DNA of 64,000 nucleotides. Source: Colletotrichum lupini. Its lineage: Eukaryota; Ascomycota; Sordariomycetes; Glomerellales; Glomerellaceae. The stretch spans positions 2,542,001 through 2,606,000 of the forward strand of contig NC_064680.1 of assembly GCF_023278565.1 (NCBI RefSeq), given 5' to 3'. Below the pieces are notes generated by a model. It did no database searches. It saw only the letters and a program-made list of their open reading frames with translations, and had not been told where the DNA came from. The position numbers and the translations under genes were made by a program. Of this stretch, positions 36,121 through 60,179 are shown piece after piece (position 1 is the stretch's first letter; each line of letters opens with the position of its first letter).

Positions 36121-36575
36121 TCAAATTCTTGCTAGGAAACGATGTGATTCAGCACTCTTTTGGCCAGACAACCCCACAATCTCCAAGCACATTCCAAGAA
36201 CATCACGAGTGTCCCTCGGGTCAATGATACCATCATCGATAAGCATCGAGCTGGTTGCATAGCTCGTCGAATCTCTGTACGCATCCTCCCGTAACTGCGC
36301 TGCCTGGGCTTTGATCTGCTCTGGGGAGAGCTTGCTACCGCCATTTGACTTGGTTCTGATGGTTTCTACAACACCTGCAAGCTGATCTGGGCCCATGACA
36401 CTGCATCGCCCCGTCGGCCACGTGAAGAGGAATCTTGGGCGGTATGATCGGCCGCACATGGCGTAGTTGCCGGCTCCGTAAGATGCTCCAAGGATGATGC
36501 TAATATGAGGGACCGTTGAGCAGCTTACCGCGGACACAAGTTGTGCGCCTGCTTTGATGATTCCAGAATGCTCTG
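36121..36575 (-). pseudogene. Acyl-CoA carboxylase beta subunit (MCC-like), C-terminal block
   Basis: The 3' exon of a carboxyltransferase cut off by element E1. It starts at the E1 target duplication (36571-36575) and reads EHSGIIKAGAQLVSAV, then the conserved GASYGAGNYAMCGRSYRPRF and WPTGRCSVMGPDQ that form the biotin-carboxylase-subunit/CoA side of methylcrotonyl- and propionyl-type carboxylases. The frame stays open to the stop at 36121. It joins without a base gained or lost to the block at 49429-50290 once E1 and one CTCTG copy are removed. In place it lacks a promoter and start, so it should be non-functional. Confidence 0.92.
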
Positions 36576-36801
36576 TGTTAGATTACGAGGCAGAAAAGGG
36601 GCCCTATTAGGTAGTTAGGTAGGGGTGGTAGGTAGGCAGTCTGGGCCCGTGCAGACGGACCCTTCTACCTACCTATACCCACTAAGGGACCGCGGGCTCT
36701 GCCCACGATCTTCCCCTCCTATACATACGCAATAGACCTATACTGACCTATTAACCTAGTCGCAACCTAAAAGGTCTAACCTACTTATATATATACTAAT
36801 A
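36576..36801 (+). repeat. E1 left LTR
   Basis: 226 bp starting TGTTAGATTACGAGG. It matches 49203-49428 with mainly C/T and G/A differences. It is much less mutated than the interior. Confidence 0.9.
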
Positions 36802-39800
36802 TTAATTAGTAATTAAATTATATATATATTTCTACTATAAGTTAATAAGGATATAACTATAGAAAAAATAGCCTCGACCTACTTCGCTAGCTATTTTAAC
36901 TTATTAACTTAGTTTTATCTATTTAATTAATAATAAGCGGCCTAGTTTATACTACCTTAGCTCTCCTTTACTACCGCTAGTTAATAACTAATTAATTAGT
37001 TACGGGTTATTAAGAGCGCGCTTTATTATATATAATCTCTTTTACTAAGACTACTATTATAAAAAGATTAACTATTTTATTACTATTATTAACCTTATTT
37101 TTATTATTAATATTATTTCCACTAGCTTTATTATTATTACTAACTTCCCTCTAATTAAACTGCTTATAGAGGAATTTATTTTAAATATATTATAACTAAG
37201 CGCTACTTTAAATTAGTAATAAGTAAGAAGAGATTAATTATTAAAAAGTTAATTTAATAATTATTAGCGTACTAGTACTTAGTAATAGTAAGACTTTTAG
37301 AATTATAAGTATATTAATAACGAATTTCTTATTAATAGCGAAGTATTCTAAGATACTAAGGAAAGGAAAAGATCTTAATAATAGTAATAATAGGGATTTA
37401 TTTTATATTATTAATAAATCTACCTCTTTTTAACCTAACGGAAGCTCTAAAACTAAATTAGTAAAATAAAGTACGAGAAGTACTAAAAGGAATTACTAAT
37501 TAGTAACTAACGGAATCCTCTATTTATTACTAAAAGTATAGTTATAAAAGGCTTTTCTTCCCTTTTTATAACCTTTTACCGACCTTAGTAACCTTCTATT
37601 TATATACTTTATTAAAGGAGTAGAATTTTTTAGCTAGTAATAATAGCCCGCTTATTACTATTAAAACGATTATTATAACCGACTTATTACTCCTTCTACT
37701 TTAATTAACGTTATATTATAATTATAATATAACGATTATATTTTATAATAATCTTTTATTATATAACTTATTTCGTAAATATATTATAATAACTACTAGC
37801 CTTAGTAATAAGTAAGAAGGGTTTAATAATTAGTTAATATTACCTCCGGCCTACTTATACTCTTAAATTATAGAACTATACCTAATTCTAATTTACTAAT
37901 AGGACTACGTTAACCTAACTTAATAGGGCTTATTTAATATTATACCCGCCCTTATAAACGATAAAAAGCTTAATACTTTTATTCTCTATATAATAGGATA
38001 TTATTATCGAGACGGCTTAATAAGCGAGGAGCTATAAAAGGACTTTAAGACCGATTTTTAAAGCTAAGAAGTAAGAGACTTTTTAAAAATAAAAAGTGCA
38101 ATTCTTAAGAAGCTAAGAGACTTTTTTATAAATAACGGTATTAATCTAACGATTAAAGATCGTAATTAAATAATAAAAAAGATTACTAACGCCTTTAATA
38201 CTTAATATTTCCTTATTTAGACTTTTAAAAAGATTATAGCTTATTATAGTTATATTAAATATTTTAATATATTATATTACGATCCTTATTTCTTTTACTT
38301 ACTACTCCCGTAGCTAGTAAATACTAACGATCTTATTTAATAAGTTAAAGAAATAGTAAAGGAATCTATATAACCCTAACTTACTTAATCTTAGTAATTA
38401 AAATTCCGACCTTAGCCTTATTATTAATTAACTAACTTACTACTTTTTTTTAAAAAAAAAGAGGAAGAACTAAAGAATAAAGTTATTATTACTTAATAAT
38501 AAAATTTACCCCGTTAGATATTATACTTCGATATAGAAACTAAAGACGATATTATACCTAATACCCGCTAATTAATTAACTTTACTAAGCTTTATAATAA
38601 TAAAAATAAGTATAATAGTAAGAAGTACGATGTTTTTAATAAAAAGCTTTGGATCTTTAAAGTATTATATTAATAAGTAAGAATTAGTAAATAATACTAT
38701 TCCGGTACTTTCTTAAATATACTTAAGGGAAGGACGTTAACTTTTTATTTTAATTAACTTAGTAGTACCTCTAACTTACTTAGTTTTAATATAATATACT
38801 AAAGGACTTAAGAATACTTCGAGCTATTTATAAGCTATTAGAACTACTTTACTAAGCTCTATAATCTTTATTAGTATTTTATAATTTATAAGAACCTAAG
38901 TAAGTCGAATTAATAAATTCTATAAGTACTAATTAACTATATTATAATCCTTTACGAGGCGCTAGTTACTTAGGGATCTATTTTTAATATAAGTAACTAA
39001 CTCTTTTACTACGTAAGTAGTATACTAAAATATAGACTTATTATACTTAACCCGGTACCTATATTTACTAATATTTATTACTAACTTAGTATTTTAATTA
39101 ATATTATAAAGAGAGAGCGCGACCGTAATAAGTAGTAGTAGTATTTCTAAAATAGTATTTATAATAAAGAGGTCCCCGCTACTTATTAAACTAACTATAC
39201 TTATAGTAGCTCTAATAGAGAGACCTAATTTAATAAGCGGAATTAACGCGGCCGCAGTATTATTAATAAAAAGTATTTTATTTATTATAAAACCGGCTAT
39301 TAGTTAACTAAGTACTTAGAGGAAGAGTAACGTTAAGTATATAAGAAGTATAAAAATAGTAAGGAAAGAAATAAGAGATTTATACTAAGCTTATACTTAT
39401 AGTTCCTCGCCTTTTATAAGGGAACTGCCCCTACTAATAACGATAACGATAATAATAATATTATAATTTAATACTTTAATAGCCTCGATTTTAATTATAA
39501 AAATAATTATAAGGACGAAGTCTAGATTTTAATAATATACCTTATAACTACTACTAGCGGTAGAACCTTTATAAATATCCTCGCTACTTAGGTAATAGAA
39601 TATAGCCTTATTAATATTACCTCTATTAACGAGTTAACTAAGCTTACGGAACTAGCGACCTCTTTCTTATTAAATAGGAGGTATTTATTAGGGGACTTCT
39701 AAAGTATTATACTTAATACTAATACTATAGAATTCTTAACTACGGGTTACCCTTAACTCCTTGTATTATAATAGTAACGACCCGAAGTTACTTTTAATAC

Positions 39801-42447
39801 TTCTAAAGCTAGCGAAGTAGGTATTTAATTTAATAATAATAAACCCGTAAGGTTATTAAGATCTACGGTCGTTAGTACCCTATTTAATAATATTACTTTT
39901 TATATTTTACTAATTAATACTCCTTTTTTATACTACTTAAGGGATATAGATAAGCTAGGAATATACTTTAATAATATTAATAACTTACTAATTAAGGGAG
40001 ATATTATAGTACTTATTATTTATAAATAGGGATACCCTTAGCTTTTGCTCCTTAATAATAAGAAAGCTATTATTAATTATTTAATAGAGGGCGAATTATA
40101 CTACTTATATTAGCGCTTTAGCTACCCTTTAGTTCCTCGTTTCCTAAAGCTACTCTAGTAGTTTAGTAACGATATAGAGATTATAGCCCTTAAGAAGCTT
40201 ATAAAGATTTGTTAATAATACTAACTTAACGCTACTACCTCTAGCCGATTTAAATTTACCCTATAAGATAATTACGATTTTAATTATAAAGTTATAATTA
40301 ACGTAATATATTTAATAAATTATAAGGGTATTAATTAACTAGTACTTTACGTCGTTAATATTACTACTTCTTTTTAAGTAGTAAGGTTCTTTGCGGATAT
40401 AATTACGAAGTATATATAGGAGGCTCTTTAGTTATATTAAATCGACGTCTATTTTAGTTTATTAGATTAAATTATTATAAATACTAATGAGAACTTTAGC
40501 GCTATAGAGTTTAAATCTTTTACTAGATTTATATTTATTAAGGTTAAGGAAGTACCTATTAAAGCTTATAATAGTATTAGTAAGGCTAAGAAATATTACG
40601 TAATATTTAAAAGGGTATATAATATTATTTATAATAAGTGCTTATTAATAAGCGCAGAGGCTATACTTTAGGCTATAATTAAGGTAATTAATATTATAGT
40701 TAGTTTAAATAGCCTCGTTCTTATACTCCTCGTTTTTAGAGCTTTTTTACGCACTTCTAACGAATTTTTATTATTACTAAATATTACTTAATATATAGAG
40801 GTAGTTAAAAAAGTAATAAGGGAAGTCCGTAGACTTTATATTAATAAGTAAGTGAGCGAGGCGCTAGCTACTCGAAACGGACTAAATATCTCTTATATTA
40901 TTAATTTATTATTATAGTTAGATATTAAAGTTTAGCGAGAAGGTAAGGGATAGAAAGGCCTATTTAAGCTCGTTTTAATAAATAGTACTATTTATATAGT
41001 AAAATTACCTCATAGCTTAATAAGCTTTTAAGCTATTATAATTAAACCCTAATATTTAGAGAAGGTCGACCCCGAGTTATTAATTATAATAATAAAGTAT
41101 ATTAACTACTTATTAATCCCCGCGGTTAATTAATTAACTAATAATAATACTACTATAAACGAAGTCCTTAACGAGATTATTATTATAATTAACGACGACC
41201 CTTTATTATAAAATAAGAGGATTAAAAGAATATTAATATAGCGCGGCTATAGTAATACTTTTATAACTACGACCTACTTTATATTTAAAAAAGAAATAAA
41301 TCTTAAGCTAGTTACTAAGCTCCGTAATAAGGGTATTATTACTACCCTAGGAGTACTTTTTATAAAATTTATTAATAAGGAGCTTTTAGGACTAGTAAAG
41401 AGAGGGGTAATTAAATTTATTTAACTTAGCCCTAAATATAGGGATATAAGGATATTTAAATCTCGATTCGTTAACGAGATTAAAAACCTAGGACTTAACC
41501 TTATTAAAAAGTCTTATTTAATTATATAAGGGTATAATAATAAGGAGAAGAAAAAGATTTTTATATAATTACTAATAATTTAAAAAACTAGTTAACGTCT
41601 AATCCTTACCCTAGCCCCGACCTTAATTTAAAAAGGCTATGTTATTTAGCTATGAGATATTATTTAAGTATATATATAATTAAGCTAACCTCTTTATTAT
41701 AAGGTTTTTGCCCGATTACTAGCTCGGATCTGTTATTTATACCCTAAGGGTACTGTTTTATATATTATATAGTTATTATACGGTCTTATAAAATCTAGTA
41801 CTTATTAATAAGTAATATATAGTAAGTATTATTTAAAGATACTCTAAATAATAATATTTACGTTCGATTTATACTTATTAGTTTTAATAAGAGAAAGCGG
41901 ATTATTTAATATTATTAGTATATAAATTAACAATATTATTAAATTATTAAATAAGACTTTTAGTTACAAAGAAGAAACTAAGCTTAAGCGCGCTAAGCTA
42001 CTAACTAAACTAAAGTAATAACTATTAGCTAACGAGCTATTTATTTTTAATAACGGGATTATCTTATTAAAAAGTATTAATATAGTGCTTAGATAGAAGA
42101 ATTAAAAGAAGAAGCTTAAGTAAGTTAACCCCTTAGTATTAGATATTAAATAATAATTCGTTAAGTAGCGAGCTTAAGGTGCTTATATCGTATTAATTTA
42201 CTAACTAGAAGTAGCTTTTAATACGTCGTTTATTACTTAATACTAAGTAGATTTATTATTTACTAACTACGCTATATTAAACTATTATATTAAATAGTAA
42301 ATAAATTACTTAGACCGAGGGCTTATATTCGTACTATTAAATCTAATTATAGCTAAACTCTTTATTTTTATAAATAGGTTATTTATAAATAACGCTAATT
42401 ATATTTTATAGCTAGGTTATATTATTATCCTTACGAATAAAGAATAG

Positions 42448-42961
42448 TGTTACGAAGGTAACTTTGTTTACCTTATTATTCGCCTTATTATCAATATTAC
42501 GTAAGCAAACTATATACCATATTAATCTACGATTTCTGTAGATTATTATAGGTATTGATTATGTAAGCAATACTGCTTATATAAGCTTACGTGAGCAGTG
42601 GAAAGTACTGGAAGATAACTGAATAATCTGGAATTTACTCGAGGCGGAATTACGTACTACGATTACGCATTCACTTACGTATATGCTTATTAATTATATC
42701 ATAATTAATAAGCAATGGAATATTCTAGTAGGAGGTTTTTATGCCTATATGTAGGCGTGTATTTGCCTACCTAGACCTTTCGTTAAGCAAGCAACTTCTC
42801 ATATAGTAATTCAACTATATTACTCTCTTTATTACAAAAACCTCTTTTATATACGCTTATTTCCCCTATATTCATATATTCTTGCTTCTATATGAATATT
42901 CACTTTTCATATTCTATATAAGAATATCCCGCATTACCTCGTTAAAGCTATACGTGCTAGA
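42448..42961 (+). repeat. 5' LTR of the intact copia
   Basis: 514 bp beginning TGTTACGAAGG and ending about GTGCTAGA; read as identical to 47865-48378. Confidence 0.92.
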
Positions 42962-42975
42962 GGTTATGAGCCCAG
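42962..42975 (+). promoter_or_regulatory. Primer-binding site complementary to initiator tRNA-Met anticodon arm
   Basis: GGTTATGAGCCCAG directly after the LTR is the complement of the initiator-Met anticodon arm (CTGGGCTCATAACC). Drosophila copia is primed by a 5' half of initiator tRNA-Met at just this place, so the same half-tRNA priming is inferred. Confidence 0.8.
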
Positions 42976-43432
42976 TTATTATATAACTGAGGTTTTATTT
43001 ACTTAAGTGAATATTATTCACTTATCCGAGCTCTTCTATTTTTATTTACCTATATCATACCTATTATCATTTAGGTATATGCCTTTATCCGGTATATGCA
43101 TATTCATATATTGAGATATCTTACTCCGCCCAAAATCACTTTTTCGAATTCGAAAATTCGAAATCGACCTTTATATTTAATAAAGGATTTATATATATAA
43201 AAAGGCAGACGAAGTGTAAGTCCTTTTTATACTATATACTTACTTTTATTAAATATCTATTTATAAGAAAAAGAAGTCAAAATAGACTTTTTCTTATATA
43301 TATTTTTAGACTTAAAATAAGTCTATTTTCAAGCTTAAAAACAAGCTTGAATTCTAAGCTTAAAGTAAGCTTATTTATACTAGGAACAATACTAGTATAT
43401 ATTTATATTATATATATTCTAAAATATATATA

Positions 43433-46400
43433 ATGGCGGATATTATCAAGGCAATTACAGGCTGCCTTATGCCTGAAAATCAACGCCTAAAAGGTAGTCA
43501 AAATTGGACTACTTGGCTTTCTACTCTTCATATTTATCTTCGACTTTTGAAATTAAATACCTATTTCGAAGTTGAAAACGAATATGAAAATATTACTGAA
43601 GAGCAAAAAACCCAATCCTTATTATTAATAAGGCAAAATATTCAACCTGAGCCTCTTTCACTTATTTTTGATCAAATTGATCCAAAAGAGGCTCTTAATA
43701 CCCTTAAAGCATCCTATGAGGGTACAGGACCAGTTCTACGTCAACAATTATACCTCGAATTCCACGCTATTAGATTGGAGCATTTTAATAGCTTAAATGA
43801 GTTTATTAGCTCATTTAAAAGCTATATTTCCAAATTAAAAAGCGTAGGAGCTATTATTGAGGATATAGACCAAAAAACGGTCTTTATATCAGCCCTAACT
43901 AATATCTTTCCGATTTGGGCTGATCGTCAAAGGTCTAATTTAAGACTTAAAGAGCCCCCTACTTTAGAGGCTCTTATTACGGATATATTAGACGAAAATA
44001 GGAGAGAAATCGATACTCCTATGTCTAGTAATACTATTAAGAGTAATAAATACTCTCGAAATAAGTATAATAAGTCTAAGACTTATTATAAGCAAAATAC
44101 CAACCCAAATACCAACCCAAATAAGCCCTCAAATTACCCAAATAAGCCCTCAAATAAGCCCTCATATCAACCCAAACCAAACCAACCCCGAAACCAGCCC
44201 CGAAACCAACCAAACCAGCCCAATCTTTTTACGAAAAACCAACGCCCACATGGAGATTTGAACCCTCAGCCCTTACAATCAAGGAATTATATGGTTAGTG
44301 GTTCCGACCACTATACCATAGACCCACTTGATGAAAATTATCAACCTTTTCTCCCTCATATATTACCCAACTCGACTCCAAATGATAATTTGGGCCTTTC
44401 GGGAGAAAATACCAATAATTCGGCTAATATGGGCACAAATACAACTGAAAGGTGGTTGTATGATACGGGTTCAACAGTCCATATTACTAATAGTATGGAT
44501 TTATTCGAAAATTTCGATAATAGGGACAATTTACCCCCTATTCGAACCGGAGCTGGCCCAGTTTACCCACAGGGTATTGGGGACTTAATTTTACCTATCT
44601 ATTTACGGGGTAAAATTATACCTATAAGGTTAAAAAATACCTTATATATTCCAGAATTCCCACTTAATATCTTTTCAGGTATATTACACTACAAAAATGG
44701 TGGATATATTGAAAAGAATTATTTAGTGGATTCTGAGGGCAATGTATTTGCTTATTTGGATTTCAAAAGGCATGGATTTTTCCTTAATATTGCTTGGAAA
44801 AATCGAAGGCCTACTACAGGGTACCAACAAAACGATTTGGACCCTAAAAATCAGTATTTGGATCTAAAAAATATTTTAGAATCCATTCAAAATTCTCTTC
44901 ATAATATTACTATTAATAATAGTAATATAGAGAAAAATACTGATTATTTATCTGAAAATTCAGATAATCAGGCCTATTCAATCACCCAGGAATGGCACGA
45001 AAAATTAGGTCATCCTTCTTACCCTTATTTATTAAAAACTGCGAAAATAACTAAGGGAATTCCTTTAGACAAATTAAAGGAAAAAGACCTAAATTGCCCG
45101 AGCTGTACTACAGCTAAGTTAACTAGGCAACAGCCTAAAATTAACTATAATCGGGCATTATTTCCACTAGAAAGGGTCTGTATTGATACAGTTAAAATTA
45201 CCCCTACTACTATTAGTGGAAATAATTACGCTATTCCGTTTACGGATGATTTTACTGGTTTTCGAGATGTTGAATTCTCAAAAACCAAAGAGAATATAAT
45301 TAATATTCTCAAAAACAAACTGGAATTTTATTTTAACCAGTTTAATTCCTACCCTAAGTATATACGCTTAGATAATGGTACGGAATTCAATATAGGGGAA
45401 TTATTACCCTATATTAACGAAAAAGGCATTATTTTAGAGCCTTCCACGCCCTATACGCCCGAGCAAAATGGTATAGCCGAAAGGACTAATAGGGCCCTTA
45501 TCGAAAAGGCTAGAACTATTTTATTAGCAGAGAAATTACCCCTATATTTATGGGACGTAATTTTGAAAGAATTAACTAAATTAGTTAATTTTACCGCTAA
45601 TATACGCCTTGAAAAGACCCCTATGGAGGCTTTTCTCGATTATTTCTTCCCAAAAAGAAATAATAAGCCGGATTTATCTAATCTAAGAAAAATCGGCTCT
45701 AGGGTACTTATTTATTACCCTACTCAAAAGCGAGTCACTTCGAATAAAATGTATACCTATACTCAAAATGGTATATATTTAGGAAAAGAAGGTAATAATA
45801 TATATGTTATATATTGCCCTTCTAATCCTTTTCGATCTCGATTATTACGGACTTCGCATATTCGATTTATTCAAAATAATAGAATAGAGGGGGTAGAAAG
45901 CGTAAATCCTCCTTTATATTCTAAAATTTTTGATAAAATCGAAGATATTCAGGAAATACCTTCTAAAATAGAGGTATTAATTCCCAAATTATCTGAGGAA
46001 GAAAAATCTAAATATAAAGATTTTACTCAGAGTATTACCCTACCTCCAGAGCCTAATACACTAAAACAGGCTCTAAATAGCTCAGAAAAATCAGAATGGT
46101 TAAAAGCTATATATTCTGAGCTAGAGGTTATTATTAAAAAGGGTACTTTATTAGCTATAGACCCAAATAAGGTCTATAAAGCTAATAAAAATCCACTATC
46201 TACTAGATGGGTCTTTAAACGAAAAATCAATATTAATACTGGTAATATTGATAAATATAAGGCCCGATTAGTAGTTAGAGGCTTCGAACAACAGTATGGA
46301 GTCGATTATTTCCAAACTTTTGCTTCTGGAAGTAATCCTACTACCTATAGGGTACTTATAGCCCTATCTGCCCCTTTAAACTGGCATATACACCAAATTG

Positions 46401-47680
46401 ACGTTATTGGTGCCTTTTTAAATGGGGATTTATTAGAAGAGGTATATATAGACCCTTCTAATATACCTTTAACTGAATTTTTTGAAAAATACCCTAATTT
46501 AAATACTATAAATTGGGATAAATCAAAAAATCAGTTATTACAGCTTTTAAAAGCCTTATATGGGCTCAAACAAAGCCCTAGACAATGGCAACTAAAGCTG
46601 AAGTCTATTTTTAATAAAATAGGCTTTTTACCTCTAAAATCCGATGAGGCTACCTATTTCAACCAGGATTTCAAAAATCCTGCTTTTATTGTTACCCACG
46701 TCGATGATTTCCTTATATTTAATAAAAATATTAAATATATAGAGGAAATTAAGGGTAAAATATCGAAATATATCGATATTAAAGACCTAGGCGAAGCCTC
46801 GAATTTCCTAGGCGTCAAAATTACTAGAAATCGGTCTAATAAGACTATTTCTCTCTCTCAAAGTCATTATATTAAGGAAATTCTTAATAATAATGATTTT
46901 TCCAAAGCTAAAATCACTAATATACCTATAAATCCGGGTATATTAAATAGTGATTTAGGGAACGAAAAAGATGACTATTTACCTTCAAAAGAGCTATTAA
47001 AGACCTACCAGCACCTAGTAGGATCTTTAATGTACGCTATGGTTGTGACTAGGGCTGATTTAGCTTTTTCAGTCTCTTTCGTCTCCCAATACCTCCATAA
47101 GCCCACTATTTACCTACTTAAGGTAGTAAAAGGTATTTATAGATACCTTAGTGGCACTATTCACTATAATATTACCTATAATGGTAATATTGGGCCTGTA
47201 GAATTAGTAGGCTATACTGATTCTAACTGGGCCGGGTGTAAAAGTACTAGAAAATCAACTTCTGGGTACTTATTTACACTAAATGGAGGTCCGATTAGCT
47301 GGAAGTCTAAAAAACAGTCTACTATAGCACTTTCTACTACAGAGGCTGAATTTAATGGACTTCAGGAAGCTATTCGGGAAGCTATTTGGCTTCAGAATTT
47401 ATTATCGGAAATAGGTTATCAAGTTAAACCTATTACTATTAAAACCGATAATAATGGGGCATTATCTCTTGCTTATAATCCTGAATATCACCAAAGGACT
47501 AAGCATACTGCCCTATATTATTATTATACTCGACAGGAAGTAGAAAAAGGGAATATTAAAGTAGAATATCTCCCTTCTACTATAATGCCTGCCGATGGGT
47601 TAACAAAACCCTTACCTCGGGTTAAACATAAGGAATTCGTTAAGCTAATAGGCTTAAACGATCCTAATAACCCTATTTAA
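43433..47680 (+). CDS. Copia Gag-Pol polyprotein (1415 aa, intact)
   Basis: One uninterrupted frame in copia order. Gag-like residues ~1-200 (opening MADIIKAITG) lead into an Asn/Pro-rich linker (~220-270); no CCHC zinc knuckle is visible. Protease: WLYDTGSTVH near 341-349. Pre-integrase zinc finger: WHEKLGH near 520 with CPSC near 555. Integrase DD35E: DTVKI near 584, RLDNGTEF near 645, NGIAERTNR near 680. Reverse transcriptase: QIDVIGAFLNGDL near 990 and HVDDF near 1089 (HVDD for the usual YVDD). RNase H: YTDSNWAG near 1262, STTEAEF and KTDNNGA, then KHTALYYYY. All catalytic residues I can check are present, so it looks competent. An antisense tRNA-like/hairpin segment lies in frame at residues ~271-301. 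Confidence 0.95.
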   Translation: MADIIKAITGCLMPENQRLKGSQNWTTWLSTLHIYLRLLKLNTYFEVENEYENITEEQKTQSLLLIRQNIQPEPLSLIFDQIDPKEALNTLKASYEGTGPVLRQQLYLEFHAIRLEHFNSLNEFISSFKSYISKLKSVGAIIEDIDQKTVFISALTNIFPIWADRQRSNLRLKEPPTLEALITDILDENRREIDTPMSSNTIKSNKYSRNKYNKSKTYYKQNTNPNTNPNKPSNYPNKPSNKPSYQPKPNQPRNQPRNQPNQPNLFTKNQRPHGDLNPQPLQSRNYMVSGSDHYTIDPLDENYQPFLPHILPNSTPNDNLGLSGENTNNSANMGTNTTERWLYDTGSTVHITNSMDLFENFDNRDNLPPIRTGAGPVYPQGIGDLILPIYLRGKIIPIRLKNTLYIPEFPLNIFSGILHYKNGGYIEKNYLVDSEGNVFAYLDFKRHGFFLNIAWKNRRPTTGYQQNDLDPKNQYLDLKNILESIQNSLHNITINNSNIEKNTDYLSENSDNQAYSITQEWHEKLGHPSYPYLLKTAKITKGIPLDKLKEKDLNCPSCTTAKLTRQQPKINYNRALFPLERVCIDTVKITPTTISGNNYAIPFTDDFTGFRDVEFSKTKENIINILKNKLEFYFNQFNSYPKYIRLDNGTEFNIGELLPYINEKGIILEPSTPYTPEQNGIAERTNRALIEKARTILLAEKLPLYLWDVILKELTKLVNFTANIRLEKTPMEAFLDYFFPKRNNKPDLSNLRKIGSRVLIYYPTQKRVTSNKMYTYTQNGIYLGKEGNNIYVIYCPSNPFRSRLLRTSHIRFIQNNRIEGVESVNPPLYSKIFDKIEDIQEIPSKIEVLIPKLSEEEKSKYKDFTQSITLPPEPNTLKQALNSSEKSEWLKAIYSELEVIIKKGTLLAIDPNKVYKANKNPLSTRWVFKRKININTGNIDKYKARLVVRGFEQQYGVDYFQTFASGSNPTTYRVLIALSAPLNWHIHQIDVIGAFLNGDLLEEVYIDPSNIPLTEFFEKYPNLNTINWDKSKNQLLQLLKALYGLKQSPRQWQLKLKSIFNKIGFLPLKSDEATYFNQDFKNPAFIVTHVDDFLIFNKNIKYIEEIKGKISKYIDIKDLGEASNFLGVKITRNRSNKTISLSQSHYIKEILNNNDFSKAKITNIPINPGILNSDLGNEKDDYLPSKELLKTYQHLVGSLMYAMVVTRADLAFSVSFVSQYLHKPTIYLLKVVKGIYRYLSGTIHYNITYNGNIGPVELVGYTDSNWAGCKSTRKSTSGYLFTLNGGPISWKSKKQSTIALSTTEAEFNGLQEAIREAIWLQNLLSEIGYQVKPITIKTDNNGALSLAYNPEYHQRTKHTALYYYYTRQEVEKGNIKVEYLPSTIMPADGLTKPLPRVKHKEFVKLIGLNDPNNPI
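44243..44335 (-). other. tRNA-like / hairpin segment antisense inside copia Gag-Pol
   Basis: On the minus strand: an exact pol III A-box (TGGTATAGTGGT), then about 45 bases later a B-box (GGGTTCAAATC). Translated on the plus strand it gives GDLNPQPLQSRNYMVSGSD, the peptide style typical of frames crossing a reversed tRNA. The acceptor ends do not pair and one T-stem pair is broken, so it is a relic or only tRNA-like. Its 5' part also folds as a perfect TAGTGGT...ACCACTA hairpin. Confidence 0.45.
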
Positions 47681-47747
47681 CCTATATTATACCCCTAATA
47701 TAGGTATTTATTTTCCTTATATTTTTATGAATACTTTAAGGAAAATA

Positions 47748-47824: not shown

Positions 47825-47851
47825 GTTAGCTATTTCAACATAGCTAATAAG

Positions 47852-47864
47852 GCAAAAGAGGGAG
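47852..47864 (+). promoter_or_regulatory. Polypurine tract of the intact copia
   Basis: GCAAAAGAGGGAG ends directly at the 3' LTR, the standard position for plus-strand priming. Confidence 0.75.
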
Positions 47865-49428: not shown

Positions 49429-50290
49429 CTCTGCTTTAGTACCTACCATGAAGCCAGTGACATTGTGGAGGAAAATGATTGGCGTATTTCTAAAGCTGGG
49501 TCAGCTAGAACGAGGAAAAGCTCTGAGCTTAAGAGACTTACTCCTGGTTGCAAAGCCGAATAAACTGCGCGGCTTTGAGGGCCTCGTGTGGATGGATCAC
49601 AGGAGTCTGGTTCGCCACAATGCCAGCACGAAACCCTTCATTGTATATGTATCAGTGAACCTTGTTTGTGAAAGGTGATTGGGTGATGAACAGCTCCTTA
49701 CCGAGGATGTCCGCCCAAGCCGTCAGCATATTCGTTCCGTAGCTCGGCTTGAAGATAGCCATTCTGGAGTCATCAACAAGTCGGAGCAACACCTCGCGCA
49801 TGTCGAATGGTTTACGAATGTCGGTGTTCACCAGATAGAGGAGATCATCGATAGAATACCGAGGAGGTACAGGGTCTGACGTATTGGGGAGTAGGCGACT
49901 GGGCTCCGGGGTGCGAAGTGTTGCAACCCATTCGCGAGCTTTTTGAATAGCATCAAACCTGTCATAATGGTGTCAGTTAGATGAAGACCTAAGCAAGATC
50001 GAGAGTTCCATACTCGTCCATCGCGATCTGATCAGCCAGTCCGGTTGTTGATGCATGAATCTTGGCCCCGCCCAGCTCTTCGGCAGTGACCACCTCGGAA
50101 GTGGCCATCTTCACTAGTGGAGGTCCTCCCAGAAACACTTGAGCCTGATTCTCCACGAAAATGGTGTAATCAGAAAGCGCAGGATGATAGGCGCCTCCAG
50201 CAGTTGAGGAGCCAAAGACAATGGCACACGAAGGTTTGCCTTGCTGAGATCGTATCGCTAGATCACAAAAGAGTTGGCTACCTTTATAGA
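49429..50290 (-). pseudogene. Acyl-CoA carboxylase beta subunit (MCC-like), middle block
   Basis: Four exon pieces between E1 and E2: 50285-50014, 49958-49702, 49635-49542 and 49489-49429, all in frame without stops. They read KGSQLFCDLAIRSQQGKPSC, then FGSSTAGGAYHPALSDYT, FLGGPPLVKMATSEVV and, at the end, IIFLHNVTGFMVGTKAE, classic carboxyltransferase motifs including the acyl-CoA oxyanion Gly-Gly. The upper edge is TCTAT (50286-50290 on the minus strand), one copy of the target duplication whose partner TCCAT is at 60175-60179. The lower edge is the CTCTG duplication of E1. The exact substrate (methylcrotonyl-CoA or another branched enoyl-CoA) cannot be fixed from this. Confidence 0.92.
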
Positions 50291-50496
50291 TGTCGGATTG
50301 GAAGTCCAATTCGACCGCGGCATACAGCCGACTGCGCAGGGGCCAATTAGGGGCCCTATTTACGATTATCGTAGCCAGCCTAACTTACGGTTAGAACCTC
50401 CTTTTTTATACTTACTACGTAGATATTTATATAGTTTAATTAATCTCTTTATTAACTACGGTTCGAACTAACTACCCTATAATAAAGATACTAATA
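50291..50496 (+). repeat. E2 left LTR
   Basis: 206 bp, the least mutated end of E2; its first ~80 bp retain many CA sites. Confidence 0.9.
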
Positions 50497-53400
50497 CTAA
50501 TTAGTAATTAAACTCTATTATTATAAATCGGTAAGGTATCTCGTTACGTAAAAAAGACGACCTTTTAATACTATATAGGATAAGAGATTCGTACTAATTA
50601 ACCTTATAGAAATAAATAAAAAAAGAGGCAATTCTCGAATACTATACAGAATTAAGTAATTATAGCCTTTTATTACTTACGAGAGGTCGATATTTATTAT
50701 ATTAAACTATGTTAATTAACGGAACTACTTAAGTAACTAGCCTTTTACTATCGCCCCGAGTAGCTTTTTTATTAAACGATTTTTCTATAGCCGGCCTATA
50801 ATTAAAAATTAACTAGTTAAATTAATAAAAGTATAGTATAAAAGAGCACTACGCGATTAAAAAAGGGGATTTTTAAACGTAAATATTCTTATTTAATAAT
50901 AAAAGTGACCCTATAGGAGTTATTAAACTAAGAGATTTATAGTATATAGGAAAGTTTATTATTATAAGGATCTTATAGGTACGACCTTAAGCCCGCGATC
51001 TAAACGACCTTTTTATAGTTCCCTTAACTACCCCCCGGGTATTATTTAAGAATATAATATAAGGGACGGTTTAACGAGGGAGGAGGGGATTTAGAGGTCC
51101 TAACGGTATCGAGCTAAGAGTATTACGGATCTTAGAAATTAACTAAAGAAGCTATTTAGAGATTATAAAAAGTACGAGGCTTAGGAGGCTAAAAGTATAT
51201 AGGATAGCGGAAATTAGTAACTAGTAAAGATCCTAAGACTAATTATTATATCTTCTTATAGTAATATAAACGTCTACTACTATTATTATTAAAAAGAACT
51301 ATTAAAACCTACCCTTTTTTACTAAACGAAAAGGAGGATCTTAATAAGTACGATAGCTAGCGATTTAGAAAAGTAATAATAATTACTAAAAATAATAAAA
51401 ACGAGAGTAGTAACGAGACGGCGAGAGGAAGCGGGAATCTCTTAGACCTTAATAAATTCGTTAAGTAGTAAAAGTACGGATTTACTACGACCCGCGCGTA
51501 GATTAAATATATCCTTATTAAGATTAAATACGCTAATAATTACTAATATAGGTATAAGCTAGAGTACGACCCTTAGCAAGTTAGAGTAAAGAAAAAGAGA
51601 ACGAAACCCGATCTTAAATAAAATCCTAATTCTTTATAAGTAAGTAAATATTAACCTAGACTATTAGGGGACGTGGATATATAGAATTGCGAATTAGCCT
51701 AACGGTGAGTAAATTAACGCGGTATTAATCTATTTAACTAAGGTTTATAAAAAAAAAGGGCTATAGGGGTAACCCCTATTTTATAAAATTATAAATAACC
51801 TTAACTACTAACTAAATAAATAGTTCGTAAGCGCAAGCCTAGGAATTATAAAAGTAGTTAATAGATTCCTTTATGGGCGAGGGGTATTACTAGCGCAATT
51901 ATAATCGCGAGAGCTATATAAAATACTAATAGCGATAATTATAAAGGAGGAATTCGTACTATAGAACTAGGTATAGGTTAATAGAGCGTATAATTACTTT
52001 AACGAATTTAGAAAAAGGGTAAACGACTTAGATTTCCTCCCTATAATTACTAACGGAAATCTATTATCGCAAAAGGATATACCGGGATAAAATATAGTAC
52101 TAGAAGTACGATAATTAATAATTCTACTTATTTCGATTTATAACTTATTACTACTATTAATACGAAATTCGGCGCTAATTAGCTAATAAGAAAGAAGGTA
52201 GACGACCCGAAGTTATTAATAGTACGTAGCGACGCAGGGTTTATATATAAATATTAAAAATCTAGTAGTAAATACGAGGTAATTTATAGACCTTAAAAAG
52301 ATCTTCCTAAAAGAGAAATTGTACTCTGGGGGGAAATATAAGGTCTTATAAGAAACCTTAACGATATTTTACGATTATTATAAAAAAGTTAGAATTAGGG
52401 AACACTAGTACTATTCGGTAATTAATATCGTACTTATAAATAAAGCCTCTAATTATTATTATAAAGCGGTGCGTAATCTCGATTAAAACGACTTTTTTAG
52501 TATAATTAACGTAATCCGAAGCCGCTTTAAGACTTATAATAAGAACCTAGAGCTCCTATTTAAGCTACGAGCGATTTTTTTTATATCTATAACTAGGATA
52601 ATAGAGGGTAAATTGCGAATAAAGATCCTTAAAAAGCTTATTAATCGAATCGATAAGCTAGCAAAAACCTAGCTAAATAAGGGGATAAACGAGCGGAAAG
52701 TCGGATATTTTTATACTATAGTTTAGCGTATACTAGAGGTAAAGATTACCTTATACTAGGTACTTAAAGACTACGAAACGCTCTACTCGAGGCTAAGATC
52801 TAGTTTTAATATTAAGGCGAGAATACTATACTAAACCTACCTCTAGGTATACGACGGCCCTTATTAATAATATTAAGTTAATCGAACGTATAATAAAAAA
52901 AAAAAGAGGCTAGATACGGTAATCGCTAGTAAGGAGGCCTAGATTTATTAAATAAGTAGAGATTTAACTTACGGGTAAGGTAATAAAAGAAGTAATACTA
53001 TATTTATAAAAAGGATAAATATTAGTTAAATAATTACTCTAAAAAAGAGTATACTAAATCGTACGAATAGTATAGAAAGTCGAGGGTAGTAAATAATAGA
53101 ACTAGCCCTCGTTAGTTTACCTAATTCCTCGTTATATATAAAAGTAGATCCGGGGGTACGGAACCTAGCGATAGTAGCTAAAATAGCGGCCTAAAGTATA
53201 TACCCCCTATAGGAGATTCGGAAAATAAAGAAGATCTTACCCCTTATACTAACGAATTAGATTATAACGAAATTAATAATATTAATTACTCTTTTTTTAC
53301 CCCGTTAGCCTCTAGAGGATATATAAGGCTAAACGAATAGAGGGTAGTAAAAGCTCTTAATAAGTAGGCTTTTATTTATAAATAGTAAGAGAAGGTCCTT

Positions 53401-56400
53401 TAAATAACGGATATAGAGATAGTTAAAAAGGCGAATCTAATAGGGCCGAAGCCTATTCTCTTAACGATTAAGGAGAAAATACTATCTTTTTTAATATTTA
53501 AAAAAAAGAATATAATACTAAGTAAATCTAAGGGTAACTAGAGGGGTCCTTTTTATATTACTTAGATCCCTCGAATACTAAGCTCGTATAAGTATTCTAT
53601 ACGAGCGAAAAGTACGGCCTAGATAATTTCTATAGGATTATCCTAAATACTAAGGTATTATAATAGTTAATTAGAAAAAAAGGGTAATTCTAAGTACTAT
53701 AAAAGATCGTATTAATAATACTTAATACGTCGACGGTAAGTATTACGAGGATTAGTTTCGGTCTAGGTAAGGAAATCGTCGCCCTAGGTATAATAAAAGT
53801 AAAGACGCACTTCGGAACGATAACTTTCTATATTTTGCCTATTAATACCCTATTTCTCTTATATTTAAAAGATATAGATCGACTAGGTATTATATTTAAT
53901 AATACGAAGAATAAAATCTTTAATAATAAGTACTTCGAGATAGTTAAACGACAATAAGGGTATACGTTTATAAAGCTTATTAACGATACGAAGTTAATTA
54001 ATTATTTAATAAAAAGTAAGCTTAGAAGACTATATTAGAGATTCGGGTACCTATCGGTTACGAAGCTATATAACCTCTTAAAATAATTAAGTAATAATAA
54101 TATCGAAATAGGGGCGCTAGAGTAGTTAATAAAAGTATATTATTAATACTAAATAAATGCGCAGAGCCTACGTAAATTTAAGTTTAAATTGCGTAATAAG
54201 CTTAATTTTAACTAGGAAATCGTTATCGATATTTTCTATTTAAATAGTTAGTTAGTATTATATATAATCGACGTAGCTATATCTTTTTAAGTAGGGTAAT
54301 TCCTCTAGGATTTATAAATAAAGATAGTATAAGTAGCCCTACGAAAAAGCTAGATCGATATATACTAGGGACCGCTAGACGGTATTAGAACCGATACTAA
54401 TACTAGCTTTAAATCGGTAGAATTTAAGGATAATACGACGGCCTACGGTATATAGCTAAAAGTCGTACCTATTAAAGCGTACTATAGTATTAGAAAGGTA
54501 AAAAGGGCATACTAATAGTTAAAAAGGGCGTTTAGAATTATTAAAAAGGAAAATCCGGATTTTATTAACGACGAATGCCTCTAAATAGTACTTAAATACT
54601 ATAACGATACTATAGGGCCTAACGGACTTATACTAACGCTATTAGTATTTAGAGTATATCTAAGAACGACCTTAGCCTCGCTATTATTACTAAGTATAAG
54701 CTAACGAGCCTAAGTAATTAAAAAAGTAATACGGGCACTGCGTAAAGTAAGTATAAAAAAGTAAGTTAATAAGGTAATTACTACGCGCAATGGGCCCGAT
54801 ATAGGGGATAATCTAGATATATTACTAAATTTAGATATATAAATATAGCGCGAAATTACTTAATAATAGACTGGGCTATATAAGTTAATTTCCGTTAACG
54901 AGCGCTTTTATATAGTTACGAGAGATCGTAACTAGCTACTCGAAGTATTAATTATAGTAGTTAGACCGTACTATATAGATCCTAACGAGGTAATTTCTAA
55001 CTTATAAAGAGAAGAAGAGCTAGGGGAAACTATATAACCCGTAGTAAAGATATAGGAAATTATCCTTAACGAAATCGTCGTAGTAGTACTAATAGACGAC
55101 GAGGAAGAGGAAATTGCTAAAAGGGTATTAATATTACTAATAAGACGTTGCAAAAGACTATAACGGTAAGCCCTAACGCGGTAATTTATTATTAATAACA
55201 AGGTAATTAATACTTTTTATATAGTAAAAGAGAAAGCCGATTTCGAGCTAATAGTTAAACTACGTAAAGAAAGTATAATTATAATTACTAAAAAGCTATA
55301 TAAGAGATTAGATCTTATCGAAATAGATACTCTTTACGATCGAGGGGTTTATTAATTTATCCTATATAACCTAAAAAAATATATAAACCTCTATATATTT
55401 AAATTATAAATAGTTCGTAAGATTAAAGGGAAAAGAACACCCTAGCCGTACGAGAAGTCTAGATACGTAATTTAGGGGTACGGTAACGTTAAAAAAGCGA
55501 CGCTACTTATATAATCGCCTACTATATAGCACTATAACTAACGATTAATAATAATAATAATAGCATCGCTATGGAAGAAGGGATATAAGAATTAGAGCCG
55601 TAATATTACCTAAGCTTATACTTAATCGGCTATAGGGCTCATAAGGAAAATCCTAGCCTATTTACCGAAGAAAATAGCTAGTAAGTACTTAGAAAGTACG
55701 ATTATTAAAGTACTTAAGCTATTATATAGGCTCGTAAAATTGGGTACCTATTAGTAGGCTATTTACTACGATTTTTATATTAATTAACTATTAATAATTA
55801 CTTTTATATACGACCTATACTTACTAATCGCGGAGTACGAAGGCGACTAATTTAAAATCATTAGAATATAGACCGACGATATATTAAGCCTATTTAATAT
55901 TAACTTTATAAAAAAAGAAAATAAAGAGCTTTAAAAAGCGGGCTTCGTAATAAAGCTAAAAGAGGTCTTTATAATAAATACCCCCTTAGTATTTAATAGC
56001 GGGATTCTTATAATCGAAAAGGAAAACGTCGTTTTTTAATAAAACGGGTAGGGCGAGACGATTAACCTCGTTAATTTAAACATAACCGATATTAAAAAGT
56101 AATATAAAGCTAAGCTCGCGCGAGGGGTATATATTATAAGTATTTATTAGCCTAAGATAACTTTTAACTACGCTAAGGTAGTATAGGCTATAGATCTAAT
56201 TAAATAAAACGTCAAAGTACTTAATAAGCGGCTTAAGTAGTAGTAGATAAATCTTAATTAAGGTCTTGTTTATTACTTAATCAACCTTATAATTAATAAG
56301 CTCTACGTCTTTATTAATAAGTTATTTATAAATAATAACGACCTTACTTTATAATTAGGGTATATTATTATCTTAGCTAACGAGAGTATAAATAAGAGCG

Positions 56401-56935
56401 AATTTACTATATACGGTAATATAATCTATTACTCGTTAACTAAAAATAAGCGGGTAACGAGAAGTATACTAATATCGGAGGTTTATAATATAGTTAACGG
56501 CGTTAACCTCTCTTATATAATTTTAATAACGTTAAAAAAGATTACCGATCGAATTAGCCTTTTACTTATTCTAATAGTTATTTATACTAATTCTTACTTA
56601 CTATATAAATACCTTATTAAATTAGGAACGACGAAGGAAAAAAGGCTTATAATCGATATTATAGCCCTTAAGTAATTATATAAAAGGTGCGAGATACTTA
56701 AGATCCGTTAGATTAATAGTAAAGATAACTTCGTAAACGCTTTTATAAAAGTAGTACTAAATAAGGGATTAGAGTAATTCGTAAGTAGTAAAAAAGTTAC
56801 TATATAAATAAAAGGATAGGTTATATAAAAAGAGTAAAGAAAAGGGGGAAAAGGAGACGACTTAGTAAATGGGCCCGAGGTCGAATTATATTTCTAACCG
56901 TAGTAATTAAATTAATAAAAAAAAGAGAAAGTTAG

Positions 56936-57141
56936 TATTAGATTAGAAGTCTAATTTGACCACGGTATATAGCTAACTATATAGGGGCTAATTAGGGGCC
57001 CTATTTATAATTATTATAGCTAGCCTAACTTATAATTAGAACCTCTTTTTTTATACTTATTACGTAGATATTTATATAGTTTAATTGATCTCTTTGTTAA
57101 CTACGGTTCGAACTAACTACCCTATAATAGGGATACTAATA
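56936..57141 (+). repeat. E2 right LTR
   Basis: 206 bp, heavily RIP-altered; its reverse complement is nearly identical to 60180-60385. Confidence 0.9.
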
Positions 57142-57209
57142 TGTAGTAAGTAGTGTGTAGTATTTTGCAAGTCTGAAGCGAAATGAAACAACGGTAAAAG
57201 AAGCTAATT

Positions 57210-59152
57210 CTATAACTTTGCCTTCCTTGCTGACTTGTTAAGCAGCGCGTCTCCCAAATCTCGTATGAGATGCTTCTGATACTTTCCACTCCCAGTCTTA
57301 GGCAGACTAGTTCCAACATCAGGGTGACCAATCCAAAACACATGCTCAGGGGCCTTGTGCCGTCCCAACTTCTCCGTAACCCAATCCTTGACTTCCGAAT
57401 CAGTCAGCTTCACAGTGCCGTTCGCCGTCTGCAGAAAGCTCGCGACCACCTCGCCATATCTTTTGTCCTGGAGGCCAACGACACAAGCCTCTGAAATAGC
57501 GGGGTGGCTGAGCAATCGATCCTCGATCTCAGTCGGAGAGATGTTCTCGCCACCTGCCAGATATTTAGTTGAAGTCTTCGGAACTCAAATTTGAAACTTA
57601 CCACGAATAATCAAGTCCTTGATGCGTCCTGTGATGTGAGCATAGCCATCAGCGTCGATCAAGCCCTCGTCGCCTGTGTGCATCCAAACCACTCCATTGT
57701 CGTCGACCTTCATCACTTCTTTCGTCTTTTCTTGATCTTTCCAGTAACCCTTCTGCAATGCGAAACCACTGGTGCATAGTTCTCCTCGAGTTCCATGTGG
57801 CACAATGGCTCCTTGAGCATCTACCACTTTGGCCGCAGTATGTGGAAGGGCCTTGCCCACGGACGCATTTCTCTTCTCATGAGCATCCTCAAGGGACGTG
57901 ATAAATGTAACTGGGCTGGTCTCTGTCATCCCATAAGCGATCAGAATGCCCTCAACGTGCATCCTTTCGCGAATAGCGGTCATCAAAGCGGCTGGCACAG
58001 GAGAGCCTGCGATGAGACCTGTCCGCAGGGTGCTGATTGGAGAGCCTGACTGCTGGAGCGCCTCCAACTCGGCAAGAAACATGCTTGAAACTCCAAGAAG
58101 GGCCGTCGCCTTCTCGTTCAACACAGCGGATAGTGTTGCCTCTGCATTGAAATTATCAGAGGCAAACACGATGGAACTGCCGTGGCAGAATGAAGCAAGG
58201 AACCCCATGATGAGCCCGAAGCAGTGGAACAGAGGTGGGGGGCAGCACACAACGTCTGCCTCGGTCAGTCGCATGGCGTCCCCCACAAATTGAGCATCAT
58301 TCACCAAGTTGCTAGACAGTTCATCAGCTTGGTATTTCTCACTCAGGGCTTGGCGCGGTATCTTACATATGAGTTAGAGTAGCGGCCTTCGGGCGACCCG
58401 TGGTTCCTAGAGGATGTTGAGCACGGGATGGAATCTAGATGGTAGCTAAACTCACCGGAAGTAAACTGGAGGTTCAGTACATCCGAAGGGCGAACCTTGC
58501 GTGCTGCTCGTCTCAAGACGGAGTCGTTCATGAAAATTGACTGTCCGCGGTTGAAGAAGAAACTGTAAGATTCAAGCATGCTACCCTGAGGAGCTTGTTC
58601 GAACTTTTGCAGGTAGACAATTTGTTTGAGCGGAGACTGTCCTTTGTCAAGACTCAAGAGACTTTCTAGGTGCGGCGACAGCGACTTTGTCCCTATTTGA
58701 GGCGACATCAAAAGGAGTTTGCAGCCTTTGGCATTGTGAAGAATTAGTAGAGGAACCAGTATTGAGATAATCACCATGGTTTGCTTACCACTGGCTAACA
58801 CGGCATTTTTCAACTCGTCGGGCGAGTACGTATTGTTGAAAACTACGTAGGGGCATCCAATGCGAGCAGCCCCAAGAAAAAGCTCAATATACTGATAGCA
58901 ATTCCCCGCAATGATTCCCACACGGTCTCCGTGATGGAGTCCAACCTCAAGGATTGCTTTGGCTATAACTTTGCTGCGGTCTGCGAGCTCCCGATAAGTG
59001 AGCCGTGTAGACTGCCACGGGACAATGACGGCAGGGCGGTCCCCATACTTTTTCGACTGTTCTTCAATGATTGAACCAAGCGGCTTAAGGATAAGAGGCG
59101 GCGAAGCAGGCCCCTGAACCAGAGAGAGCGATGCATCCACCGAAGGCGTCAT
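57210..59152 (-). CDS. Acyl-CoA ligase (AMP-binding family), predicted peroxisomal
   Basis: Five exons (59152-58789, 58725-58456, 58406-58367, 58311-57602, 57553-57210) give 575 residues. Adenylation motifs are complete: FTSGTTGRPKAATLTH near 209-224, YGMTETSPV near 351, HTGDEG near 436 with ITGRIKDLIIRGGENISP, and the catalytic Lys552 in TGSGKYQK. The protein ends in AKL, a canonical PTS1, so it should act in peroxisomes. It would activate a free acid to its CoA ester for breakdown. The start is the first ATG of the frame; upstream codons are non-ATG. The gene is intact. It lies head-to-head (324 bp) with the N-terminal block of the broken carboxylase, and both sit in the segment flipped between E2 and E3. 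Confidence 0.92.
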
Positions 59153-59476
59153 GATTGCGGAAGGTGAGGTAAGGTACTTGACGATGAGAACGATGGGCAG
59201 AAAAGACAATCAGTAATATGAGCCAGATGCGAGATTTCGTCTATGAAAACTAATCTACATACCATAAGTCATAAATACTGTTCCCCGGATGTCTGATAGC
59301 CGACATCGAGGTGGGCCAACCGGGGCCCGAGGGGCACGCGGGGATCGGTCCGGCAGAGCGCCAATGCCCTGACCCATACTCAGAAACCCAGTACTTCTAC
59401 CGAGTCACACGCGACCAAGACGCAACTGACTCTGCTCGATACCCACAGCTTTACTTCTTCCCTCAATTTGATCAAC
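59153..59476. promoter_or_regulatory. Bidirectional promoter of the ligase and the carboxylase
   Basis: 324 bp between two divergent start codons (59152 minus, 59477 plus). It contains the GC-rich motifs CCGGGGCCCG (near 59320) and CGGGGATCGGTCCGGC (near 59340), the latter with CGG/CCG triplets of the type bound by Zn2Cys6 factors. Binding by the nearby regulator is only a suggestion. Confidence 0.55.
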
Positions 59477-60179
59477 ATGATTGAGCAGCTTTTTCCCGTC
59501 GAGAAGTCAACCGTTGACCTCACTGCATCCAACTTCCAAGCGAATCGTCAAGCATGGGAGCCGGTTTTGCAAGAATTTGACAGTTATCTGAAAGATGTGT
59601 CCTCGGAAGGGGATGAGGCTTCCACATTGAGACACCAAACGAGACACCAACTGCTGCGTAGGTCGCTTTTCGGTAATTAACATATTGAGACATTTGAGCT
59701 GACTAGCACGGTCCAATGAAGCACGAGACAGGATTGCGTTGCTGCTCGATGCAGACTCGCCGTTTCTTGAGTTAGGATGCTTCGCGGGGTTCAGGGTCTC
59801 CGGGTCTAACTCCTGCGCAAATATCATTGCAGGTATCGGCCTTGTTAGGTGAGTTCACTTGGGAGCACTGGTTATCAATCCATTTCTAACAGAGAACGAG
59901 TCAACGGCCATGCCTTCTTATGTCGCATATCCCAACGCAGAGTGGAGGAGCTTGGAATGAAATGACAGGTGAGAGCTTATTCTCCATTTCTCTCGAGGCC
60001 AGACTCCTAACATAAGGGCAGTCCTCAAGGTCAACCGTATACTTGAAATAGGATTCGAGAACGATCTGCCTCTAATCTCACTGGTTCAGTCGGTAGGATT
60101 GCCATCACCAAGCGGAATAAAAATATTCTGACTATCAAAGGCTGGTGTCTTCTTACCTCAACAGTTTCGAGTCTTCCAT
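59477..60179 (+). pseudogene. Acyl-CoA carboxylase beta subunit (MCC-like), N-terminal block
   Basis: Five exon pieces on the plus strand: 59477-59657, 59707-59848, 59895-59968, 60022-60092 and 60141-60179. They read RDRIALLLDADSPFLELG, then CFAGFRVSG, IPTQSGGAWNEMT, NDLPLISLVQS and GVFLPQQFRVFH, the start of a carboxyltransferase. The block stops at the TCCAT duplication next to E3. Its continuation (KGSQLF...) is at 50285 on the opposite strand, 9.9 kb away. All exons of the three blocks sum to 547 codons with every splice phase matching. Here the truncated message would read into E3, so no full enzyme can be made. Confidence 0.92.

What the first reader, a model, noticed from the sequence alone, without database searches (positions are those of the whole stretch)
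36121..60179. A carboxylase gene broken in three blocks on two strands that still joins in perfect frame
Ten exon pieces at 59477-60179 (+), 50285-49429 (-) and 36570-36121 (-) add to 1641 bases, 547 codons including the stop, with every splice phase matching and no stop or frameshift. Both insertion points are defined to the base by target duplications (CTCTG for E1, TCCAT/TCTAT for the second). So the gene was destroyed by transposons recently enough that no coding decay is visible, although the transposons beside it are RIP-saturated.
Basis: partly seen in the sequence, partly recalled or inferred. Interest (0 to 1): 0.9.

Follow-up and report, generated by a model that had tools for sequence, protein, structure and literature searches.

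The report
Carboxylase gene split by transposons, part inverted
In a plant-pathogenic Colletotrichum fungus, a metabolic gene was cut twice by jumping elements, and its first third was then turned around by recombination between two facing copies of one element: a known kind of accident, here unusually easy to read.

Summary
The three blocks (59477-60179 +, 50285-49429 -, 36570-36121 -) tile an intact C. acutatum acyl-CoA carboxylase beta subunit exactly: residues 1-167, 168-395, 396-544 (pieces compared apart, never joined). Corrections: the better exon-3 acceptor gives 1635 nt, not 1641; and two of four window-only residue changes sit 12 and 24 bp from an LTR end, so there is slight decay. 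Blocks 1 and 2 are separated by two inverted copies of one LTR element, L (50291-57141) and R (60180-67215). Their 5-bp target duplications match crosswise (TCCAT/TCTAT, CTGCA/CTACA), not within either element. So 57142-60179 was inverted by recombination between two originally separate elements. The arm halves facing the segment differ at 7 of 3421 sites, the outer halves at 394 of 3429, 389 of them transitions: the arms were homogenised after RIP. The neighbouring ligase, HMG-CoA lyase/hydratase and carboxylase alpha genes look intact. Host: Colletotrichum, most likely C. lupini (inferred). The kind of event is known. Mis-orientation in the assembly is the main rival.

The parts
33667..35643 (-). 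Fused HMG-CoA lyase + enoyl-CoA hydratase gene next to block 3; apparently intact, ends in AKI
   Evidence: Pfam HMGL-like and ECH_1; its 434-aa exon is 94% identical to a C. nymphaeae protein; translation
36121..36570 (-). Block 3 of the carboxylase beta gene, to the stop codon
   Evidence: Carboxyl_trans 350-477/493; residues 396-544 of C. acutatum P0122
36571..36575 (-). Target duplication CAGAG of E1, 3' copy
36576..49428 (-). E1: LTR element between blocks 2 and 3, RIP-mutated interior, LTRs 94% identical
42446..48378 (+). Copia element nested in E1 (ends approximate): 516-nt LTR repeats 100% identical, one 1415-codon open frame, not RIP-saturated
49429..50285 (-). Block 2 of the carboxylase beta gene, four exons; its last 5 bases are the CAGAG duplication
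50286..50290 (-). Target duplication TCTAT, outer end of L; pairs with TCCAT at 60175-60179
50291..57141 (-). L: left inverted LTR element; inner half 53721-57141 almost identical to R, outer half 11.5% different
57142..57146 (-). Target duplication CTACA, inner end of L; pairs with CTGCA beyond R (window coordinates 67216-67220, outside the window)
57142..60179 (.). Inverted segment: acyl-CoA ligase, divergent intergenic stretch and block 1
   Evidence: crossed target duplications and block order
57210..59152 (-). Acyl-CoA ligase gene (introns not modelled), ends in AKL, stop about 65 bp from the insertion point at 57142
   Evidence: Pfam AMP-binding and AMP-binding_C; translation
59153..59476 (.). 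Divergent intergenic stretch between ligase and carboxylase starts, not RIP-mutated
59477..60179 (+). Block 1 of the carboxylase beta gene, five exons; its last 5 bases are the TCCAT duplication
60180..64000 (+). R: right inverted LTR element, runs past the window end to window coordinate 67215; carboxylase alpha lies beyond it at 67.8-70.4 kb

Best explanation
An acyl-CoA carboxylase beta gene in a conserved catabolic cluster was broken in stages. (1) E1 inserted at the block 2/3 junction (CAGAG). Element A inserted at the block 1/2 junction (TCCAT). A second copy of A's family, B, inserted in opposite orientation (CTGCA) about 65 bp behind the ligase stop codon. The order among these three is unknown. 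(2) All three were heavily RIP-mutated, with slight spill-over into target duplications and probably two codons. (3) Recombination between A and B, facing each other across 3.04 kb, inverted 57142-60179 and left the inner 3.4 kb of both arms nearly identical. (4) A young copia inserted into E1, before or after step 3. Shown: tiling, duplications and their crossing, RIP signature, homogenised tract. Inferred: that one recombination process made both the inversion and the homogenisation, and that the gene has lost its function.
For: Pieces tile P0122 1-167/168-395/396-544. Crossed duplication pairs agree at 4 of 5 and 4 of 5 bases, both mismatches C/T or G/A in CpA/TpG context; uncrossed pairs agree at 0 of 5 and 0 of 5 (sequences, counted by hand). 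A third copy, T, has a normal GTAAT/GTAAT and is not homogenised (about 86% to either arm). Inner arm halves: 7 differences in 3421 sites; outer: 394 in 3429, 389 of them transitions; longest stretch with at most 7 differences 3421, against a maximum of 459 in 2000 shuffles of the same differences. RIP saturation does not explain the identity: the inner halves keep slightly more CpA+TpG (10.2 and 10.5 per kb) than the outer (6.2 and 8.0). In a search with the first 319 bases, L and R are 100% and the next copy 94% (40 of 1384 candidates scored).
Against: Orientation rests on one assembly; no reads were available. The CTGCA/CTACA match alone (4 of 5) would arise by chance at about 1.6% (my arithmetic). 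No fungal relative's DNA was available to show the uninverted order. A predicted C. aenigma protein fuses beta and alpha (P0126), so gene order may vary in the genus and the simple uninverted order may not be ancestral. C/T differences between L and R are not mainly in CpA context (next base in L: T 93, A 51, G 50, C 23), which fits exhausted CpA sites but is not a clean RIP signature in itself.
Confidence: 0.83

Rival explanations
1. Assembly mis-orientation: the insertions are real but the 3-kb segment was placed backwards between near-identical arms, so the gene is simply split on one strand.
For: Arms of 3.4 kb at 99.8% identity around 3.04 kb can be flipped in an assembly, and the crossed duplications would then look the same.
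Against: 12 contigs, the five whose length I saw apart from two small ones being 4.1-8.2 Mb, suggest long reads; the outer halves differ by 11.5%, so reads of about 10 kb would fix the orientation. The homogenised tract shows that the arms have exchanged sequence in any case.
Confidence: 0.12
2. Living switch: the segment still flips in growing mycelium and both orientations coexist.
For: Near-perfect inverted arms with few later mutations.
Against: No read or population data. The beta gene stays broken in either orientation, because an element remains between blocks 1 and 2.
Confidence: 0.15
3. The blocks are separately transcribed and joined by trans-splicing into a working protein.
For: Open phases in all blocks and no overall acceleration of protein change.
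Against: Both breaks lie inside exons and are marked by target duplications, and I see no splice sites at the junctions (sequences); recent breakage explains the open frames.
Confidence: 0.01
4. The two arms arose by a local inverted duplication of one element, not by two insertions.
For: Inner halves are nearly identical.
Against: Both are full elements with their own 3' LTRs, outer halves 11.5% apart, and two distinct target duplications.
Confidence: 0.03

Closest known systems
Inversion by ectopic recombination between inverted transposon copies (known in many organisms; recalled)
   Same: Breakpoints inside two facing copies of one family; exchanged target duplications
   Different: Small (3 kb), part of a gene already split, between RIP-mutated copies, with a measurable tract homogenised after RIP
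Structural variants in Cladosporium fulvum (PMC10823647, passages seen)
   Same: Inversions in a strongly RIP-mutated fungal plant pathogen; one of its two large inversions has breakpoints in repeat-rich regions, the other at an identical 7.2-kb duplicated segment
   Different: 654 kb and 1.2 Mb; the 1.2-Mb one disrupts no coding sequence, the other lies within 500 bp of genes; the term gene conversion occurs 0 times in that text
Copia-driven genome growth in asexual Colletotrichum lupini (PMC11645255, passages seen)
   Same: Very likely the same species; Copia said to have the highest impact on genome-size variation; presumably clonal lineages
   Different: The words RIP and inversion occur 0 times in that main text; the locus is not in the passages I saw
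Mitochondrial methylcrotonyl-CoA carboxylase beta subunit
   Same: Same Pfam family; all three blocks align with MCC beta chains
   Different: A paralog on contig C4 is probably the mitochondrial one (58% identical to block 3 over 71 residues; inferred). The broken gene ends in ARI, as 63 of the 120 listed relatives do; 112 of 120 end in ARI, ARM or ARL, resembling a peroxisomal signal (recalled)

Membership tests
Acyl-CoA carboxylase beta (carboxyltransferase) gene | Carboxyl_trans domain over the whole length, in order | tested here: met
   Blocks match profile 10-106, 126-348, 350-477 of 493 and tile P0122
Acyl-CoA carboxylase beta (carboxyltransferase) gene | Methylcrotonyl-CoA as substrate | not testable with these tools
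   Sequence only; geranyl-, propionyl- and methylcrotonyl-CoA carboxylase chains all match
LTR-element insertion | Paired LTRs and a short target duplication at both ends | tested here: met
   E1 CAGAG/CAGAG; T GTAAT/GTAAT; L and R have paired LTRs, duplications crossed
RIP-mutated repeat | CpA/TpG depletion | tested here: met
   4.8-10.5 CpA+TpG per kb in element interiors, 135-167 in coding stretches
RIP-mutated repeat | Transition-only divergence, biased to CpA | tested here: inconclusive
   389 of 394 outer differences are transitions, but only 51 of 218 C/T differences have A next in L, as expected if CpA is exhausted
Inversion by recombination between inverted elements | Target duplications exchanged between the two elements | tested here: met
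   TCCAT/TCTAT and CTGCA/CTACA crosswise, 0 of 5 within each element (sequences)
Inversion by recombination between inverted elements | Uninverted order in a relative | not testable with these tools
   No relatives of this genome are held
Inversion by recombination between inverted elements | Orientation confirmed by spanning reads | not tested
   No reads available

The most novel reading that the evidence does not exclude
The 3-kb segment with the acyl-CoA ligase, the divergent promoter stretch and the first third of the carboxylase is a natural flip segment: its 3.4-kb arms keep recombining in mitotic growth, so RIP-dead transposons are kept identical and both orientations coexist in a clonal fungus.
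Probability: 0.15. Interest if true: 0.65.

Novelty: new member of a known kind. Interest (0 to 1): 0.45.

Why it matters
RIP gives each repeat copy its own scatter of transitions. Here those scars act as a barcode that shows, nearly to the base, where two elements later exchanged sequence and how a gene fragment was turned over. It suggests that recombination between dead transposons can still reshape gene clusters in a presumably asexual fungus, and it offers a simple genome-wide test: look for facing element pairs whose inner halves are identical and whose outer halves are RIP-diverged.

Tried and rejected
Frameshift in exon 3: with the acceptor before 59893 the frame broke; acceptors giving 59895 or 59901 keep it open. 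Stop in block 2's first exon: an artefact of reading past the donor; the GTATGG donor at 50013 gives an open frame. Intact duplicate elsewhere: block 2 as DNA finds one place, itself; block 1 finds its own four exon places and C4, block 3 itself and C4, at E up to 0.001, all first-look candidates scored. LTR dating was dropped because RIP inflates LTR divergence (E1 LTRs: 13 transitions and 4 gap columns over 224 nt). Which of the 120 relatives has S at block 2 position 3 was sought with a pattern and not found. Papers: 2 hits; 2; 5; 3; 0; 17, 10 listed; 22, 12 listed; from titles and abstract starts none described this case. I make no claim of absence from print beyond these.

Full report
Where it is. 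The window is G000:C7:2542001-2606000 of a 63,443,975-base genome in 12 contigs. The best matches of the neighbouring HMG-CoA lyase/enoyl-CoA hydratase exon are Colletotrichum nymphaeae (94%), C. fioriniae and C. acutatum (92%) (8000 candidates scored, best 120 listed). Contig C11 has 523,226 bases and C12 36,554. A paper on C. lupini gives genome sizes up to 63.4 Mb and 0.52 Mb for accessory chromosome 11 (PMC11645255, passages only). The host is therefore most likely C. lupini; this is inference.

The gene. The three blocks give open, correctly spliced frames of 507, 684 and 450 nt. Against the intact C. acutatum protein P0122 (544 aa), block 1 covers residues 1-167, block 2 168-395 and block 3 396-544, with 160 of 167, 223 of 228 and 148 of 149 identities. 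The pieces were compared separately and not joined.

Decay. Against the three closest sisters (P0121, P0122, P0123) four residues are private to the window: block 2 positions 3 (S for G), 7 (C for R) and 158 (A for S), and block 3 position 85 (Q for E). P0121 and P0123 are partial models, so part of block 1 can be compared with P0122 only and differences there cannot be assigned to a branch. Among the 120 listed relatives, position 3 is G in 115 of 119 aligned, A in 3, S in 1; position 7 is R in 90 of 119, H in 19, Y in 9, K in 1, C in none. Those two codons begin 12 and 24 bp from the end of L's LTR. The simplest base changes are G to A and C to T; sister DNA was not seen, so spill-over of RIP is inference. 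That 2 of 4 private changes fall in the first 7 of about 546 codons of which block 2 starts the count has a chance of roughly 1 in 1000 (my arithmetic, after the fact). Sister branches carry similar numbers of private changes (at least 6 in P0122, 2 in P0121, 4 in P0123, counted by hand), so the broken gene is not changing fast overall.

The inserts. E1 (36576-49428) has 224-nt LTRs that differ by 13 transitions and 4 gap columns, CAGAG on both sides and a RIP-mutated interior. It carries a nested copia with repeats of 516 nt that are 100% identical and a 1415-codon open frame with gag, integrase and reverse-transcriptase matches, three of six below Pfam's own cut-off. In a genome search with this LTR all 40 scored matches, the window's two included, are 100% (rounded) over 514-516 of 516 bases; 40 of 296 candidates were scored, and an element counts twice. 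The copia is AT-rich but not RIP-saturated. So it probably spread after RIP last acted strongly. RIP is reported in other Colletotrichum regarded as asexual (PMC6180176, passages), so I do not claim that RIP is lost here.

The inversion. L (50291-57141, minus) and R (60180-67215, plus; the part beyond 64000 fetched) are facing copies of one family. In its own sense L has CTACA before and TCTAT after; R has TCCAT before and CTGCA after. Within an element 0 of 5 bases agree in both cases; crosswise 4 of 5 agree in both cases, and both mismatches are C/T or G/A in CpA/TpG context. The copy T, 23.7 kb to the right of R, has GTAAT on both sides, the normal state. The gene supports the crossing independently: TCCAT is the end of block 1, and TCTAT stands directly before block 2.

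Homogenisation. L and R differ at 7 of 3421 sites in the halves facing the segment, all transitions, and at 394 of 3429 in the outer halves, 389 of them transitions. Against T both arms differ by 12.8-12.9% inside and 14.0-14.1% outside. The longest stretch with at most 7 differences is 3421 sites; the maximum in 2000 shuffles of the same differences was 459, a control that treats sites as independent. The tract reaches the second base of the element. In a search with the first 319 bases L and R are identical and the next copy is 94% (40 of 1384 candidates scored). Saturation by RIP is not the cause: the inner halves keep more CpA+TpG (10.2 and 10.5 per kb) than the outer (6.2 and 8.0). A transfer of sequence between the arms after RIP is the natural cause. 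C/T differences between L and R are not mainly before A (51 of 218 in L), which fits exhausted CpA sites. At 0.2% divergence since then, about 0.1% per copy, 1-2 neutral substitutions are expected in 1635 nt (my arithmetic), so intact frames are no surprise.

The cluster. Besides the blocks there are the HMG-CoA lyase-enoyl-CoA hydratase fusion (33667-35643), an acyl-CoA ligase (57210-59152) and, just outside the window, carboxylase alpha with biotin carboxylase and biotinyl domains (67.8-70.4 kb). 'Intact' rests on open frames and Pfam coverage; only the fusion's exon was compared with sisters. Relatives of the fusion and of beta carry locus tags one or two apart in at least five genomes, for example E0L32_000895/000896 and VTN00DRAFT_3213/3215 (names). 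The fusion ends in AKI, the ligase in AKL, beta in ARI, which resemble peroxisomal signals (recalled). The likely role is breakdown of a branched acyl compound (inference); the substrate is unknown. With beta broken the pathway is probably dead unless the C4 paralog substitutes; not tested. Some Colletotrichum relatives of the hydratase carry the name AFT6-1; that is a name given by the source and no evidence of a toxin pathway.

Verdict. Against this stand the lack of spanning reads and of a relative's DNA, and the fused beta-alpha model of C. aenigma (P0126), which hints that gene order varies in the genus. The kind of event is known; its legibility is what makes it worth keeping.

Noticed in passing
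window 42446-48378: Young copia nested in E1; all 40 scored genome matches of its LTR are 100% identical (rounded; 40 of 296 candidates scored), suggesting a recent burst after RIP last acted strongly.
   Followed up: partly
window 33667-35643: HMG-CoA lyase and enoyl-CoA hydratase fused in one gene, found in many ascomycetes, ending in AKI.
   Followed up: partly
window coordinates 67.8-70.4 kb (L002/L003, outside the window): Intact-looking carboxylase alpha gene with biotin carboxylase and biotinyl domains directly beyond element R.
   Followed up: partly
window coordinates 90885-98296 (L005/L006, outside the window): Third copy (T) of the L/R family with normal GTAAT duplications, used as control.
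   Followed up: yes
window 50286-50496: L's 3' LTR, next to block 2, is less RIP-mutated than L's interior (GC 0.389 against 0.29-0.30; 42.7 against 6-10 CpA+TpG per kb).
   Followed up: no
window coordinates 89.1-90.9 kb (L005, outside the window): Open frames that look like a cytochrome P450 gene (heme motif recalled, no search made), close to the left end of element T.
   Followed up: no
window 6376-8322, 19240-21057, 31072-32205: PAF-acetylhydrolase-like, carboxylesterase and fungal transcription-factor genes left of the cluster.
   Followed up: no
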